Assembly (NCBI GenBank): GCA_030770425.1
Contig: JASJFT010000093.1
Location: 1-64,000 of the forward strand
DNA: 64,000 nucleotides
Reading direction: 5' to 3'
Origin: Darksidea phi
Lineage: Eukaryota; Ascomycota; Dothideomycetes; Pleosporales; Lentitheciaceae
Shown here: one piece after another, positions 39,822 to 55,200 of the stretch
Position numbering within the stretch: the stretch's first letter is position 1
Layout: every line of letters starts with the position of its first letter
Program-made: the position numbers and the translations under genes
The notes under the pieces: model-generated
What the model saw: the letters and a program-made list of their open reading frames with translations, nothing else
Told to the model about the DNA's origin: nothing
Databases searched by the model: none

Positions 39822-40358
39822 GGTGGAGGGGTCGCGCGCTTCTCATCAAAGTCGTGCTCGGAGATGACAACGCAATCGGCTCGTCTAAGGGAAATGAAGG
39901 ATGGCGACGCGACAAGGTGCGACGAGGTGGAATGCGGCAGGGGACGGGCGGGGGAGGCAGTCGGACGACGTCTCAGGCGCAATTGCGCGCAGAGGGAGCG
40001 ATTGAGCGTGGACTTGGAAGGCGACAGCAACCGCGACGGACGGCGCAGACCACAGGACCCTGATGTTTGCGTGGGGAAGCTATACACAAGTAAAAAGGGG
40101 CCTTTTGCCCCCTCGTTGCCTCGATGCGTATCATGTCGGAGATTGGGGTCGTGCTCGCTCAGTCTGATTGGCTCTTGCAACATCGCTGCCGGTTTGGGAC
40201 GTCGCCAAATCACGGGACCGGCCAGTCGCACCCAAAAGAAGTCGTGATGGAATGTCTTCGGCATCGCATCTCATGCCCAAAACGCTCTTCAACTCTCATC
40301 ACCCCCTAGTGCTATCCTTATCGAGCGGGTAATTCCCTGACAGGAACGCGTGGTTCAC

Positions 40359-40458
40359 ACAATGGCCCTAACCGTCACACAACGGCCCTAATCGTCACAC
40401 AACGGCCCTAATCGTCACAAAACGACCCCAACCGTCACACAACGACCCTAACCATCAC
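40359..40458. repeat. Minisatellite, five 20-bp units
   Basis: Five direct tandem units of exactly 20 bp. Units 2 and 3 are identical (ACAACGGCCCTAATCGTCAC); units 1, 4 and 5 differ at two to four positions. Most units contain CCCTAA, the fungal telomere-repeat hexamer on its C-rich strand, once per 20 bp. Confidence 0.92.
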
Positions 40459-41152
40459 ACATCTCAATAAACTTTACAAAGCCAAACACCTTGCTAACGT
40501 CGGGGATTTGGACATAAACGGCTCTGAAAGCATTCCTTTGCGCAAGCTACTATAAGCGAACGGCCCGAAAGTACGTCAGCGACGCAACGCCAACGCGTGC
40601 TTGGTTCCGCGTCGCTGAATTAAGCAAGGCGACCTGCCGAAAGCTTCTCCCTCACAGCATGTACGGCTTTGATGCTTTGAGGAGCATGTGGGACGAGGTC
40701 ACATATATACGTATAGTCGTCAATTTTGGCCTACAATAGGTAAAAGATAGTCTTTGTAGCCAATGTTTCAAATTAAAAACGTGCTTGAATGATTCTTCAA
40801 ACCCAGTTAATTTTTTATAAAAGCCCTCGCTTACCGTAGAGAACTAAGGAGGTTGAAAGAAGTAGTCAACACAACTTTGTCAACTATCACTTTCCTAGTG
40901 ACCCATGATCAGCTTTCTGTTCTCTAACAAGGCAGATGAAGAGTCTGTAGAAAGGACTAGCGCCCGCGAGAAACGGGTCGATAGTTGGGTGAGACGGTGC
41001 ACGCGGCGTAATGTAATGGTGTCGTAGAGAGAGATAGTTACGTTGAAAGTTTAGCCATTGTCCACGCTCAAAACAGGTGCGATTTGGGTACGACATTCAA
41101 GACTGCCAAGCTACAACAAGAAGCATTGTCAAATAATAATGGCTTTGATGAG

Positions 41153-41380: not shown

Positions 41381-43166
41381 TCATTCCTTCTCAGTCACCA
41401 CCCCTCTCGCATCATCCAGCCCGTACTTTGACTGCAACTCTGTCCTCAAACGAACTTCCGGAATCAAACAAGCCAGCACAAACCCAAGTCCCGCAAAAGC
41501 GAGGCTGACATGCCATGTAAAAACCAGACTTCCTTGAAAGATCCATATAGCATCCAGCCGTGTACCTAACGGTAACGAGATAAGAAACTCCCTTGACGCT
41601 CGGTCGTAAGCCCTTCCCTCACCAAGTGCACTTCGAAGCAGACCATCGGTCACTCGTTCTAGCATTGAAGCGGCTCGGCTGTTGACTGCCATGATCAGCA
41701 AATGCTCAGACTTAAGAAGAAGGCGAACTGTACTTACAGACGGCCGATGGAATCGCGGCGCCCCACACAAAACCCAAACTTTGAACAAATCCCCACATCG
41801 CGGTCGAAGATGCTGTGTCCTCTTCTAAAAGTCTCGCTTGGATAGCCGGAAGCAATGCAGTGAGAACGAGACCAGCGCCAAAGGCCATTATGATTTGAAA
41901 AACCGCCCACTGTGCTGTCTCAGTGTCAGACTGAAGTAGGGAGAAGCATCCTTGCGCAATGAGCATCAACGCAAAACCTCCGATCTGATTTGGCTTGTAC
42001 CGGCCAAACTTTGCAATTGTGAAACCGCCTAGTATGCCTGCGGGCACCAAGGCAATAGCCATAGGCAGACAGTTGATGCCAGACTGTTTGGGCGTGTTTA
42101 ATCGAACGGCTTGGAAGTATATGGGTATACAGAGGCTCGACCAGTAGAGAAGCAGTCCGTGGAGGAAGGTGACAGCGAATGCAATAAGCGATGTCTTGTT
42201 CTTGAAAAGATGAAGGGGAACTGTTGGGTTGGGGCATATAAGAGAAGATGACTGGAGGTAGATGAACATCGCAACGCCGAGCAGACCGCATAACAATGGC
42301 ACAATGCACCTCCACGAACTCCAGGGATACCGTGCATCAGCCCAACTCAAAGCAATCAACATAGCAACGATCGCAGTAGTCAGAACAGCATTCCCCAGAA
42401 AATCGATTCTGCGAATCTGCGCAGCGAACGTCCCTTCTCGGCCATGCTTCAGTCGGAGGAAACCCAGTACTAGGCCCAGAGCCGCAGCGCCGATGATAAG
42501 CACAAGGTAGAAGATCCAACGCCAGCCGATGGTTTCGGCAAGAGTGCCCCCTAGGATGGGTCCGATGAAGGTTCCGATAGCGAAGGCTCCGTAGATAATC
42601 GCAGTGTACTTTTGTCTGTCTCGCAGAGGGACTAAGTCGCAAATGATCATTCCGGGCAGAATGCTCAACCCCCCACCGCCCATTCCTTGTACTGCGCGGC
42701 CGAAAATCAACATAATAGTCGATTTGGATAATGCGCATACTAGACTTCCAGCTAGAAATGTGGTAATCGCTGCGACGAGAGTAACCCGTCGTCCAAATAT
42801 ATCCGCCACTTGGCCGTATAGTGGTTGCAGCGCTGTCATGGCTAACGTATACGCGTTGATTATCCAGATATAGATGTCCCCGGAGTGTAAATCGTTTACA
42901 ATGGTGGGAAGAGCTGTAAAGACGACTGAAGCGTCAAATGCAGTGAGGAATGAGCAGAAACAGAGGCCGGGGAACACCGCCCAGAATTGCCATGGCTTGT
43001 GGGAATCGGTAACAACTTCATCGGGCAAATTCGAATTGTCTCCATCGGGGACGTCATCGCGCTTCTTGTCGTTATCAGAATTCATGGCGCGTTCAGAGTC
43101 CCGTTGGTAGTTGGAGGAGTCGAGAACGCCGACCTGATCGTATGAATGCGACCGTTCGCCACTCAT
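41381..43166 (-). CDS. MFS exporter of secondary-metabolite type (DHA2, 14 helices)
   Basis: Plasma-membrane proton antiporter predicted to export small molecules; relatives include fungal toxin pumps of the TOXA/gliotoxin-transporter group. Exons 43166-41738 and 41685-41381 (donor GTAAGT, acceptor GGCAG) give 577 aa. After an Asp-rich cytosolic N-terminus come WQFWAVFPGLCFCSFLTAFD, motif A as YGQVADIFGRRVTL, FGRAVQGMGGGGLSILPGMI (motif C-like), GPILGGTLAETIGWRWIFYL and CIPIYFQAVRL. The C-terminal exon supplies VFNSRAASMLERVTDGLL and the last helix. The start at 43166 (MSGERSHSYDQ) was chosen since the upstream frame has only a non-ATG start. It is intact, unlike its neighbours, and is transcribed in the same direction as the methyltransferase and prenyltransferase bodies, so export of their product is the natural inference. 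Confidence 0.9.
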
Positions 43167-43354: not shown

Positions 43355-44294
43355 CTAATGCGGTTTCCTCCCAAGTATATACACCATGTCCATAAGAAGC
43401 TTTACGCCTCCCTGGCACTCAAGAATAAGATTCCTGGACATCTCTCTCCAATCGTCTGCGGTGAGCTGATCGCTCGGCATTTTTCCGGCCTCGCACATGG
43501 GGATAATGTCATCCTCGATGAAGTCTCGGTTCGCCATCAGCTGCATCAAAGTCCAAGGCCTGGCCATTCCGTCACTGACTGGTACTCGCTTGAAGTCGAG
43601 TACTTCGAGGCCGTGCTCGCGGAAGATATCGTCCATTCGTCCTACCCAGCGAGTAGTAATGCCCTGGGATATAAGCCACGCCTTTCCGAAAGCTTCCATT
43701 TTATCAGCGTAGTCATGCGACACCGCAGGGTCAGAAGTGTGGGGGCGGACCGCTCCGAGATCCAACTCGTCCCAACAAAGATAACCGCCAGGCCCTGATA
43801 AGTTGTTTTTAGTTTGTCGAGATTCACCACAAGAAGATGTGGGTGAAAAACCTACGGAGAAGAGCCATGAAGTTTCTCAAATGTAGTGAGGGATCTTCAT
43901 TCAGGATGTAGAGGACAATACGCCCAATATGGACAACGTCATAACGCCCAACAAGGTGTTCCGGGATAGCTTTGGTTGCATCCATCTGCGCAAGGCAGAC
44001 GTTGGCGGGAAGCTCATCCTTGGGAGGAAAGTGGGCGGTTGAAATGTCAAAGCCGTCTAGTTGCGCAGATTGCGGGGCATGCCTCGCAATATCGACCAGC
44101 CAGATGCTGATTTGGTTCAGCCTGATTTGTACCGACATCGGTCATAGAAACGTACCCTGTTCCACACGCAATATCCGTTATCTTGAGGTCGGGGCTTTCC
44201 AATGGTATCTTGGGATGAATAAGGAAGCCTGCTTCTGCCGTGCACATCCAATGTTGCAGATAGAGCCTTCTGAAGTCAATGTTATCCTTCCGTA
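43355..44294 (-). pseudogene. SAM-dependent methyltransferase, body without its first exon part
   Basis: Class I methyltransferase of the type common in fungal metabolite clusters, missing its start. Coding text runs 44294-44156, 44106-43856 and 43794-43355 with 49- and 61-nt introns and consistent phases. It begins at RKDNIDFRRLYLQHWMC, then GFLIHPKIPLESPDLKITD with SAM motif I as DIACGTGIWLVDIA across the first intron, GFDISTAHFPPKDELP, YDVVHIGRIVLYI and ALLRPGGYLCWDELDLGAV; it ends in GGVKLLMDMVYILGRKPH. Upstream of 44294 the frame changes abruptly into sequence belonging to the prenyltransferase C-terminus on the other strand. The missing 20 codons with ATG are found at 44886-44946 on the plus strand. 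The gene has no start in its present arrangement, so the body is presumed silent or non-functional. Confidence 0.87.
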
Positions 44295-44549
44295 CAGCTT
44301 ATCACCGAGTTGCAAAGAATGGAAGGTCACAACAACGATGAGGGGTACGCTGATATGCTACGCTGCATCTGCACATATCGGCGGCTAGACGATGATAAGG
44401 GACTGCAAACTTATATCGCAGTATCACCGAAGGGTGGTTCCATGGATATCACAGCGTATGTCACCCCGCAGATATATACGAGGCTTCAGCAGCGGGGTAC
44501 CGGTGAAAAGGCTACGATCGTTGCCGGAAACGGACATGACCAGATGTAA
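44295..44549 (+). pseudogene. Inverted C-terminal fragment of the DMATS prenyltransferase
   Basis: An 84-codon plus-strand frame ending in TAA at 44547-44549 carries the C-terminal part of a DMATS/ABBA prenyltransferase: GYADMLRCICTYRRL, DDDKGLQTYIAVSPKGG and SMDITAYVTPQIY. In the family this block immediately follows the point where the minus-strand prenyltransferase body breaks off at 44947, and the two pieces are in phase with each other. The fragment has no start of its own. It directly abuts the methyltransferase body, whose 5' end is lost at the same base. Confidence 0.88.
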
Positions 44550-44885
44550 GCCGCATCATTCAATATTTCTCACTCGCATATGTTAAAATAACTTAAGAGA
44601 TGGCACAGCAGTTGTTGAACGACCGATTTGCGTGATTTTATTGTACCCTTTAGATATGTCATCCAATCACAAGTAGCGGCTGAAAGCTCTTCGGTTGCCT
44701 CGAAGGGCGTCGGACTCAGAATATATATTGCTGAGGATTTTTAATTCAAGCACAAACTACTGTGGGACACGAATTCCGTGTATATCAGAGCTTGTTTCCG
44801 ATCTCGTAACTCGACGTTATGTTGTTTTGACGACCTTGGATACATCTCTACTCCAATCAATCACTTCGTACTATAAATAGCCGTA

Positions 44886-44946
44886 ATGCCAACCGAACAC
44901 GAGGTTCGCCCTTTTCGGCGGAACATGGATGCTGCAGTCAGGTATG
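44886..44946 (+). pseudogene. Inverted start of the methyltransferase gene
   Basis: ATG at 44886 opens MPTEHEVRPFRRNMDAAVRY followed by one base of the next codon. The residual phase (one base) is exactly what the methyltransferase body, which begins with two bases of a codon at 44294, requires. RRNMDAAVRY is of the form expected just before the body's KDNIDFRRLYLQHW. As it stands the frame runs on into prenyltransferase antisense and is meaningless. Confidence 0.75.
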
Positions 44947-45987
44947 TCCTAACCCCTCGGCAACCTCCAGATCGTTGGTTCCATAGTGTTTGACCGGGAT
45001 ATAGATCCTTGGAAAGGGCGCGACGTGATTGCTGTGAATGTCGAAGTTGTACAGCATACCGGATGTTTGGTGACGCTGCTTAGGTTTTACACCAATTTCT
45101 GGCGCAACAAGACCAATCAAAGTACGAAGCTTGTGGAGAGCGGTTTCCGCCCAAGGGTGCGGGAGTTCACCGTTCATTGTGAGCACAGCCTTGATCTTTT
45201 CTATCGAGGTATACTGGGATCTCAAATAGACCTTCAGTCTTGACTCGCTCGATGCAACACAATCTATCCCTAGCCCCAAAAAGGCCAGTTCCTTCCCCGT
45301 GTCTGTCACTTGAAGGAAGCGATGAAGCTGCTCGACGGTTGGAAATGAAACCCCGTCTTGACTAACATTCGATATGGCGTCATGTACGAAGTTCCAACCG
45401 ATAGAAGGGTCTTCAATGGCCATAGGTGGGGTGAGATATGCGCCGGCGTTTGGTCGGCCACCGTGGAAATCGAAGCGCAGGCCAAGTGAGGTGCGGCGAG
45501 GTAGATGTTTGGCTCGGACTTCGCATGCATGCCCACATGCAGCGAGGAAGTATGAGAAGAGGTCCCAGGGTAGGCGAGGGTATGCACCCTTCAATTTTTG
45601 GACAAGCTCCAAGGTCTCCAATTGGTTGAAGGGATCGGCCGCTGATCCCGCTTGAGAACCGATTGCTTCGATGTTGACACGCACTTTTGGGAAACTGTTG
45701 ATCGATTCCCATGCCCAGCTCAGCTCAAGAGGAGAATGGTCGTCTGTCATAAAACTTTCCCAAGGGCGGATCGCCGGTGCGAAACTCCCGATGCTGGGTC
45801 GGGGGCCAAGATGACCCACAATGAACTGGAGGTAAAAGAACATTATCGCATATTGTCCATGGATATCGTACCCAGCAGCTTGCAGCATTGTTCCAAGGAT
45901 CGGCGCTTTTTTTTCCCACCAAAACACTGAAGCCTCGTCTGAGAAGTCGAACCTTTCTCGGATTACTGCCCAAGGATGAGCGGCCAT
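44947..45987 (-). pseudogene. DMATS-type aromatic prenyltransferase, body lacking C-terminus
   Basis: Prenyltransferase of the tryptophan dimethylallyltransferase (ABBA barrel) family, which moves a prenyl group onto an aromatic, often indole, substrate in fungal secondary metabolism. From ATG 45987 the uninterrupted 347 codons include ASVFWWEKKAPILGTMLQAA, GYDIHGQYAIMFFYLQFI, the conserved SFMTDDHSPLELSWAW, RTSLGLRFDFHGG, the RLKVYLRSQ basic block and MLYNFDIHSNHVAPFPRIYI, IPVKHYGTNDLEVAEGLG. Two foreign codons and a stop follow at 44946-44938. The family is usually about 420-460 aa; the missing 84 residues plus stop lie inverted at 44295-44549. Loss of the last barrel strands should abolish activity. 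Substrate cannot be inferred. Apart from the break there is no stop or frameshift, so the damage looks recent. Confidence 0.92.
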
Positions 45988-52242: not shown

Positions 52243-55200
52243 TCAAGCCTTCTCATTATCCGATGTGCTGACCGCGGTGCTAAGGTACTTTTCAAACACT
52301 CTCTGCTCAAGATCAATACTTCCCCTGCGCACACCTTTCTTCTGGTCCATCTTCCTGAAGTAAATCCTCTTGGCCCACTTCCACGACTCGATGCCTAAGA
52401 AGAACAGGAAAGTAGCAACGAACACAATAGCCCACTCCCAGCTAATACCGGTATGCTTGAATACAACTCGGTTGATAACAGGGATATAGAGGACGGGAAA
52501 AATGGTGACGAAGCCAGCCATAATGGAATAGAAGAGGAACTTATTGCGCCAAACATCGTGGAACCACTGAGTGAAATATCTCTTAGAGTTGGGCTGCATC
52601 ATGAAAAAGGATCGTCGCATGTCAACCATCTGCCATGCAAGGAATAGCGAGAACCAGGTGAGGGTGGCGAAACAAGTCGCTCGAGCGCGGAAAACGGTGT
52701 CGCAGTCTAGTGAGTAGGAGTCGTTGCAGTTGTGACCAAGATTGCCGTCGCCAAACGCATTAAGAACAAGCGTGAAAGATGCGAGACAGAGGGCGGCGAT
52801 CCAGAGACCATAGACGACCATGTCGCACATGACTTCGAGAGTGAAGACACCACGCTTGAGCTGCAACACAGTTAGCATCAATATGAACATACCTAGATCA
52901 GCAACACTTACACTTTGAGGTGGTCGGCTCAGGATATCAGGCGCGGCAATTTCGAAGCCGAGACCCATATCAGGGACGGAAGATGTGACCATAATGATCC
53001 ACATCACCTCGACCGGAGATAATGGGAAGACTGAGAGATAGGTGGAATCCTTGAATACCAAGCCAATGAGGAGGATACAGGCTTGTGCAATGTTCTGCGC
53101 GAGAAGATGAAGAATAAACTTCTGAATATTGTCGAACATGCGTCGGCCTTCTTCAATAGCGTTTAGGATGGAAGCAAAATTGTCATCGGTCAGAACAATA
53201 TCAGAGGCGTCCTTGGCTACATCCGATCCGGTTCCCATTCCAATGCCCACGTCGGAACGCTTGAGGGAGGGTGAGTCGTTCACACCATCCCCGGTCATGG
53301 CAGTGAAGGCTTTCCGCCTATGCAAAGCGTCGATCATTCGGACTTTTGTCTGTGGCGCACATCGTGCGATGACCAAAGGTAGGAGTGGCAGACTGTCGAT
53401 TTCGTCATCACTCAGTTTATCAAACTGAGAAGCAGTCATGACCTGCAATGGACGTTAGCAGTTATTAAAATTGATAAATGGCGATTCTGTATCTCACCAT
53501 GGCGTCCGCCACGTCCTTGCTCACGGTGGCCATGTTCGAAGGAAGGATTCCCACTTCTTCTGCAATCGCTCGCGCGGTACCCGGGTGGTCACCAGTAAGC
53601 ATATGAACTGTGATACCAGCCTTCTGGCATTGGCGGACCGAGCCGGCGGTCTCGGGCCTTGGGGGGTCGTATAGACCGACGAGGCCTCGGAAAACTAATC
53701 CCTCCTCGATATCCTTCCTGTCAATGTCTTCGCCTTTGGTGATGGTGCCTTCCCAGGACTTGCTGGCCAAAGCTAGAACACGAAGACCGAGAGCCGCTAG
53801 AGATTCCATGTTCTTGAGGATATCGTCCCGGATTGCGTCCGTCATCTCGGTAGGCTCGTCACCTTCGCCGTGGAAGATGGACGCGCATGAGTAAATGACA
53901 CGCTCCACTGCACCTTTCGTAAAAACAAACTTGTTAGATGTTGCGGCTTCCTCGAAGATGACGGACATTTTCTTAACGTCGGAGTCAAAGGGAAATTCGG
54001 CAATCTGTTTCCAGGCAGGTGAATCGCCTTGAGTGTATTTGAGACGGTTCCAGTCGAAGCGGGAAGCGAAGACCTGGATAGCAATTTCAGTAGGATCGCC
54101 ACGGGCATTCCAACCTCCATCTTCGCCGTGACTCTCGTGTACATGCGCCAGGTTGGCCAAAGATGCCACTTTCAGGTACTCTAGAAGATGCGTGTTGTTG
54201 TCAAGTAGCTCCTCATAGGTCGAAGTTTTCTCCTCTTGTTCGAAGTCAATCTTGCTGGGCGGCTTCGCGGTGAAGGCAAGGGAGCCGACGGTGGGGTTGA
54301 CGGGTGAGTCTGTGAGCCCCACTGAGTAGGTGCCCTTCGCAGGGATCCACGCTCTCTTCGCAACCATTTTTCCTTGTGTAAGCGTACCGGTCTTGTCAGA
54401 GCAAATATCCGTCACTCCGCCGAGAGCTTCTAAAGACTTTAGGTTACGAACAATCACATGTCTTTCGACCATGCGCTTTGTTCCAGCGGCCATCGTGATA
54501 GTCAAGACCACAATAAGAGAGGCCGGAATCATACTGAGACCGGTTGCGACTGCATAAATAATGACCTCTTGATCGTTGGCGAAGCTGTTGGCTGCCATGA
54601 CGATAATGGCGCAAAGAACGGCGATACCAAAAAGAAGAACTGCAAGACGCGAGAGCTTCTTTTGTAGAGGTGTGCCGACGTTGACGCCAAGGAAGTGGCC
54701 TACAGCATCTGTCAAGGTCAGACCCCATGCTTGCGCATAGCGATGGGGGCCGGCGGTGCCATCGTCCTTGCGTTTAACTGTACGTCGTCGAGAGCCCTTG
54801 TCTCGTAATGAAACGGCGATACTTCCGATCTCAGTATACATCCCAGTGGCAAAAACAACACCGCGACCGCGACCCTTCGTAACAGTCGAAGAGCTAAAAG
54901 CAACATTGAGGCGATCGCCTGGGCCCGTTTCGTCGTCAAATACCGCTTCGGCGTCTTTTGAAACAGGAAGACTCTCGCCGGTCAAAAGTGCCTCGTCGGT
55001 CTCGAAATTGACTGCTTCGATGAGGCTGGGTGATGTTAGTAACGTTTGACAAGCTCTTTGAGAGTGTCTACCAACCGAACATCCGCTGGGACAGTATCAC
55101 CGGTTTTCATTTCGACCATATCGCCGGGTACGACCTCGATGGTCGGCACAGTGACAGTCTTGCCTTCACGAATTGCTGTGGCAGTGGGCGAGCTCAGGGA

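What the first reader, a model, noticed from the sequence alone, without database searches (positions are those of the whole stretch)
44295..44946. One 652-bp inversion has split two neighbouring biosynthetic genes
Seen in sequence: the DMATS prenyltransferase body (minus, 45987-44947) stops exactly where its family's last 85 codons should begin, and those codons are on the plus strand at 44295-44549. The methyltransferase body (minus) begins without a start at 44294, and a plausible ATG with its first 20 codons is on the plus strand at 44886-44946. A single pair of breakpoints explains both, and each reading frame is preserved across its inferred original junction (347 + 85 codons; 61 + 830 coding nt, both multiples of three). 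Neither gene shows other damage. Inference: one recent inversion knocked out two genes of a metabolite cluster. A shared ACA at the junctions suggests end-joining with microhomology and not repeat-driven flipping.
Basis: partly seen in the sequence, partly recalled or inferred. Interest (0 to 1): 0.93.

Follow-up and report, generated by a model that had tools for sequence, protein, structure and literature searches.

The report
Small inversion splits two fungal genes
In this fungal genome assembly a flip of about 650 bases has cut the ends off two neighbouring metabolite genes at once, a plausible but unconfirmed one-step loss of a small chemical pathway in what looks like a group of fungi already known for frequent inversions.

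Summary
The minus-strand DMATS prenyltransferase reads only up to about residue 340 of relatives; the rest lies on the plus strand at about 44304-44549, in the only orthologue-like copy found in the 51-Mb assembly. The first exon of the neighbouring methyltransferase lies on plus at 44886-44941, its other exons on minus. One inverted segment (about 44304-44949) explains both.

Three details change. The methyltransferase break lies inside intron 1, so '61 + 830 nt, frame preserved' is no evidence. The edges shift by 3-9 nt. The shared ACA is within chance.

All family-invariant residues that the pieces cover survive (DMATS 35 of 35, methyltransferase 18 of 18), which fits a young event but equally an assembly error. 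Relatives keep DMATS, methyltransferase and MFS transporter genes as neighbours, seen in pairs only; the MFS gene here looks intact. As assembled, the DMATS frame lacks the last two of ten strands and the methyltransferase its start and part of its N-terminal helix, so both are probably inactive. Nearest named relatives point to Pleosporales. Without reads or other isolates neither assembly error nor inversion polymorphism can be excluded. It is a tidy new case of a known kind of event.

The parts
44950..45987 (-). DMATS prenyltransferase body (about residues 1-340 of the family)
   Evidence: PF11991 profile positions 3-338 of 357, 254.5 bits; mapping; as assembled the frame runs on for 3 codons to a stop, 349 aa in all
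44304..44549 (+). DMATS 3' piece (about residues 341 to end), now on the opposite strand
   Evidence: 35 of 63 identical to P0006 266-328; 8day_A 364-415; 7 of 7 invariant residues kept. No Pfam match of its own
44550..44885 (.). Intergenic stretch inside the inverted segment
   Evidence: Lies between the DMATS stop and the methyltransferase start; promoter content inferred, not tested
44886..44941 (+). Methyltransferase exon 1, now on the opposite strand from the rest of the gene
   Evidence: Best place in six frames for the N-termini of P0030, P0020, P0019 and P0023
44942..44949 (+). 5' stub of methyltransferase intron 1 with donor GTATGT
   Evidence: Donor at 44942; intron position from relatives
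44267..44303 (-). 3' stub of methyltransferase intron 1, ending in the tandem acceptor CAGAAG
   Evidence: Acceptor ends at 44267; the stretch between it and the break has no counterpart in relatives
44156..44266 (-). Methyltransferase exon 2 (N-terminal helix part and start of the SAM motif); first in-frame Met at 44247
   Evidence: 5 of 5 invariant residues kept
43856..44106 (-). Methyltransferase exon 3
   Evidence: Match to P0019 at 58%; intron 2 is 44107-44155, 49 nt; 6 of 6 invariant residues kept
43355..43794 (-). Methyltransferase exon 4 with stop
   Evidence: Match to P0019 at 57%; intron 3 is 43795-43855, 61 nt; 6 of 6 invariant residues kept
44304..44949 (.). Inverted segment, about 646 bp; each edge uncertain by several bases
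   Evidence: Edges from separate alignments of the pieces
41384..43166 (-). MFS transporter gene next to the pair, two exons, apparently intact
   Evidence: PF07690 3e-46; first exon 323 of 428 identical to P0115, second 43 of 91

Best explanation
A two-break inversion of about 650 bp, with one break in the 3' part of a DMATS-type prenyltransferase gene and the other in the first intron of the methyltransferase gene downstream of it, has separated each gene from one of its ends. The DMATS reading frame now stops three codons past the break and lacks the last two strands of the ten-stranded barrel. The methyltransferase start codon and exon 1 now point the other way, and its other exons have only an internal Met to start from. 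The likely result is loss of both enzymes of a small DMATS-methyltransferase-MFS cluster by one event. Shown: places, strands, a single orthologue-like copy, conserved residues, no perfect repeats at the breaks. Inferred: that the arrangement is in the living fungus, that it arose in one event by end joining, that it is young, and that both enzymes are inactive.
For: Body and tail of DMATS match the same relative up to and from the same residue, on opposite strands. Methyltransferase exon 1 and the other exons lie on opposite strands, with the fitting donor and acceptor ends of one intron. One segment accounts for both. Three other DMATS places in the genome run to profile positions 347-356 in one frame. 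In Paraconiothyrium brasiliense the two genes bear consecutive numbers, SLS60_006300 and SLS60_006301, on contigs of the same length. Intra-chromosomal inversions are frequent in Dothideomycetes (PMC3516569, passages).
Against: No reads and no second isolate: the closest DMATS relatives are 54-56% identical. The P. brasiliense methyltransferase model (P0030, 197 aa) skips the exon 2 part and more, so it may be misannotated or damaged itself, and strand and spacing there were not seen. Ohm et al. report simple repeats near Dothideomycete inversion breaks; none is within 500 bp here at the score used. Perfect retention of conserved residues fits an assembly error as well as a young event.
Confidence: 0.78

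Rival explanations
1. Assembly error: the segment was placed in the wrong orientation, or a chimeric read was used, and both genes are intact in the fungus.
For: No reads were available. All invariant residues that the pieces cover are kept, as expected if the genes are intact. Two weak imperfect inverted repeats flank the segment at a distance: 43963-43999 with 45234-45270 (37 nt, 70%) and 43835-43859 with 45076-45100 (25 nt, 76%).
Against: No repeat sits at the junctions that would mislead an assembler, there is no N in the window, and no second copy of the stretch in the assembly.
Confidence: 0.13
2. Separate events (for example a duplication of the stretch in reverse followed by deletions) gave the same picture.
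For: The pieces cannot show the order of events; a few bases at the joins may have been lost or gained.
Against: The pieces map to residues 1-340 and 341-414 with no lost or doubled part (limits chosen from the alignment), and no leftover copy exists elsewhere in the assembly. One inversion is simpler.
Confidence: 0.04
3. The split genes still work, by joining of separate transcripts or by a shortened methyltransferase starting at the internal Met.
For: All covered invariant residues are kept; the methyltransferase body keeps its SAM motif and an in-frame Met at 44247.
Against: The missing parts are core structure: two barrel strands on the P0004 model and part of the N-terminal helix with invariant Arg19 and Gln23 on the P0019 model. 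I recall no trans-splicing of this kind in ascomycetes.
Confidence: 0.03
4. Site-specific or repeat-driven invertible switch.
For: A short segment flips expression of two genes at once.
Against: No inverted repeats at the breaks; the flanking pairs are 70-76% alike and 200-460 nt away from them. No recombinase was found among the 29 window frames scanned against Pfam, which is part of the window only.
Confidence: 0.01

Closest known systems
Intra-chromosomal inversions of Dothideomycetes, mesosynteny (Ohm et al. 2012, PMC3516569; passages seen)
   Same: Inversion within a chromosome, in what is probably the same class of fungi.
   Different: Those described are mostly large and tied to simple repeats; this one is about 650 bp, cuts two genes, and has no simple repeat within 500 bp at the score used.
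Non-functional variants of secondary-metabolite clusters (Lind et al. 2017, PMC5711037, passages; Tolypocladium inflatum, PMC6367777, passages)
   Same: Loss of cluster genes; both papers mention inversions at clusters, for example one that moves three genes 275 kb away in one A. fumigatus strain.
   Different: In the passages seen, loss is by frameshift, nonsense, deletion, or inversions that move or reorder genes; none describes one inversion with a break in each of two neighbouring enzyme genes.
Dimethylallyltryptophan synthase 1, PDB 8day
   Same: Best solved relative of both DMATS pieces by sequence.
   Different: One intact chain of 419 residues; substrate and product are not transferable from this resemblance.
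Paraconiothyrium brasiliense SLS60_006300 / SLS60_006301
   Same: Relatives of the DMATS and the methyltransferase with consecutive numbers.
   Different: Not seen as DNA; the methyltransferase model is short and skips exon 2.

Membership tests
DMATS-type aromatic prenyltransferase (PF11991) | Sequence match to the family profile | tested here: met
   Body: profile 3-338 of 357, 254.5 bits, cut-off 25. The tail piece alone has no Pfam match but matches relatives.
DMATS-type aromatic prenyltransferase (PF11991) | Complete ten-stranded barrel in one reading frame | tested here: not met
   The frame ends at 349 aa; on the P0004 model the break falls in helix 333-346 and strands 378-386 and 389-396 are lost.
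Class I SAM-dependent methyltransferase | Sequence match to family profiles | tested here: inconclusive
   Exon pieces alone give no Pfam match at E 0.1; the spliced body finds 93 relatives and the closest, P0019, matches Methyltransf_25.
Class I SAM-dependent methyltransferase | Start codon and N-terminal helix in frame with the rest | tested here: not met
   Exon 1 is on the other strand; upstream in-frame codons of the body include TAA and TGA.
Simple two-break inversion | Two junctions that exchange the ends of two sequences, single copy | tested here: met
Simple two-break inversion | Support from reads or several isolates | not testable with these tools
   No reads; closest DMATS relatives 54-56% identical.
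Invertible switch | Inverted repeats at both edges | tested here: not met
   Only imperfect pairs 200-460 nt from the breaks.
DMATS-methyltransferase-MFS cluster | The three genes are neighbours in a relative | tested here: inconclusive
   Seen in pairs only, from names and contig lengths.

The most novel reading that the evidence does not exclude
The inversion is a standing polymorphism that works as a one-step off allele: a single flip of about 650 bp silences both enzymes of a three-gene pathway while leaving every conserved residue and the transporter untouched, so the population holds the cluster in an on and an off orientation.
Probability: 0.07. Interest if true: 0.7.

Novelty: new member of a known kind. 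Interest (0 to 1): 0.42.

Why it matters
If real, it is a clean snapshot of how a metabolite pathway can be lost in one mutation that hits two adjacent genes, and an example of a very small inversion in a class of fungi whose gene order is known to be shaped by larger ones. A gene caller would see only two truncated genes, so such micro-inversions may be overlooked; a screen for gene ends lying on the opposite strand beside their own body would find more. It also warns against predicting a product from such a cluster.

Tried and rejected
Rejected: repeat-driven flipping (the imperfect flanking pairs are told above). Rejected: ACA microhomology as evidence. Rejected: frame preservation at the methyltransferase junction, because the break is intronic. 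No second copy or alternative haplotype was found in the assembly. Rfam: 0 matches at gathering thresholds. Literature: ten searches listed no title or abstract start that reports this locus or one inversion cutting two neighbouring cluster genes; only listings were seen except passages of three papers, so this is weak evidence of absence. DNA of fungal relatives could not be reached, so synteny rests on names and contig lengths in hit tables. For conservation counts I used 16 of 16 DMATS relatives but only 20 of the 93 methyltransferase relatives; short or partial ones such as P0021, P0030 and P0034 were left out. Of 117 window frames of at least 110 codons only some were scanned against Pfam.

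Full report
What was checked. The finding says that one inversion split a DMATS prenyltransferase gene and the neighbouring methyltransferase gene. In all tool calls I kept the pieces apart and aligned each to intact relatives.

Setting. The window is the first 64 kb of contig C471 (171,972 bases) of a 51.35-Mb, 477-contig assembly. Named relatives of the three genes include Paraconiothyrium, Periconia, Massarina, Lophiotrema, Lentithecium and Trematosphaeria. Three were looked up (Paraconiothyrium, Trematosphaeria, Lentithecium): all Pleosporales, suborder Massarineae. Placing the window there is inference. The closest DMATS relatives are 54-56% identical, so no isolate of the same species appears among the hits.

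DMATS. It matches P0006 up to residue 266 with 149 of 267 identities. The plus-strand piece matches P0006 266-328 with 35 of 63 identities, P0003 with 27 of 49, and PDB 8day_A 364-415, where the body ends at 351. Identity is 56% in both parts. The tail alone has no Pfam match. P0006 finds 6 places in the assembly: this body (56%), this tail on the opposite strand (52%), and four at 29-41%. In the family search three other places run to profile positions 347-356 in one frame; five further matches are partial.

Methyltransferase. Exons 2-4 are on minus (matches to P0019 at 44125-44283, 43854-44108 and 43367-43801). In 19 of 20 aligned relatives the invariant Arg19 and Gln23 are joined without an insert; the twentieth, P0020, has 20 extra residues there, which I read as a retained intron. 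The window's exon 1 piece ends with that Arg at a CAG|GTATGT donor (44941|44942), and exon 2 starts at 44266 after the tandem acceptor CAGAAG. Exon 1 is the best place in the window for the N-termini of four relatives, by a wide margin for P0030 (62 against 31) and P0020 (65 against 24), narrowly for P0019 (30 against 25) and P0023 (32 against 30).

Edges. Cut at about 44950 and 44304 the DMATS pieces map to P0004 residues 1-340 and 341-414. I chose these cuts from the alignments, so the exact fit is partly by construction. The segment is then about 44304-44949, 646 bp. Small losses or gains at the joins cannot be excluded.

How the break arose. No repeat sits at the junctions. Two imperfect inverted pairs flank the segment at a distance (37 nt at 70% and 25 nt at 76%, arms about 300-460 nt to the left and 130-290 nt to the right of the edges); the tool warns that short pairs are often chance. 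No tandem repeat of score 50 or more lies within 500 bp, unlike the trend reported for Dothideomycete inversions (PMC3516569, passages). The junction neighbourhoods share 11 trinucleotides against 7.6 on average for random pairs. End joining of two breaks is the simplest reading, by inference.

Age and effect. All 35 residues invariant in 16 DMATS relatives are kept (28 in the body, 7 in the tail), and all 18 of the 20 invariant methyltransferase positions that the pieces cover (1, 5, 6 and 6; 20 of 93 relatives used). This fits a young event and equally an assembly error. The DMATS frame now ends at 349 aa. On the model of P0004 (mean pLDDT 84.3) the break lies in helix 333-346 and the last two of ten strands are lost. 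On the model of P0019 (mean pLDDT 92.1) exon 1 supplies the first part of helix 14-31. Loss of both activities is likely, not shown.

Cluster. Pairs seen in relatives: DMATS-methyltransferase in P. brasiliense (SLS60_006300 and 006301); methyltransferase-MFS in Bathelium mastoideum (M1822_006242 and 006241) and Hymenoscyphus fraxineus (HYFRA_00003745 and 00003744); DMATS-MFS by equal contig length and source (28,451 and 20,281 bases), which is an inference. No relative was seen with all three. P. brasiliense does not appear by name among the 74 MFS hits listed, a list drawn from a capped candidate set. Its methyltransferase model P0030 skips exon 2. The window's MFS gene looks intact. The product is unknown.

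Verdict. Whether it exists in the living fungus is open. It is a neat new instance of a known kind of event.

Noticed in passing
window 40355-40461: Tandem array of a 20-nt unit, 5.3 copies, about 4 kb left of the inverted segment.
   Followed up: no
window 44267-44275: Tandem splice acceptor CAGAAG before methyltransferase exon 2; either site could be used.
   Followed up: partly
G000 C452:188431-189521, C428:75144-75665, C429:142955-143128: Other DMATS matches in the assembly are partial; the second C452 piece has one TGA inside. They may be spliced genes or relics.
   Followed up: no
G000 C459:62646-62937: Two adjacent methyltransferase-like stretches, each with one stop inside, possibly a relic or intron-split gene.
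   Followed up: no
window 52246-55096: P-type cation ATPase in two adjacent open frames, 52246-53454 and 53468-55096; an intron or a frameshift between them.
   Followed up: no
P0030 (SLS60_006301, P. brasiliense): The public gene model of the neighbouring methyltransferase is 197 aa and skips the exon 2 part; likely misannotated, or damaged there too.
   Followed up: partly
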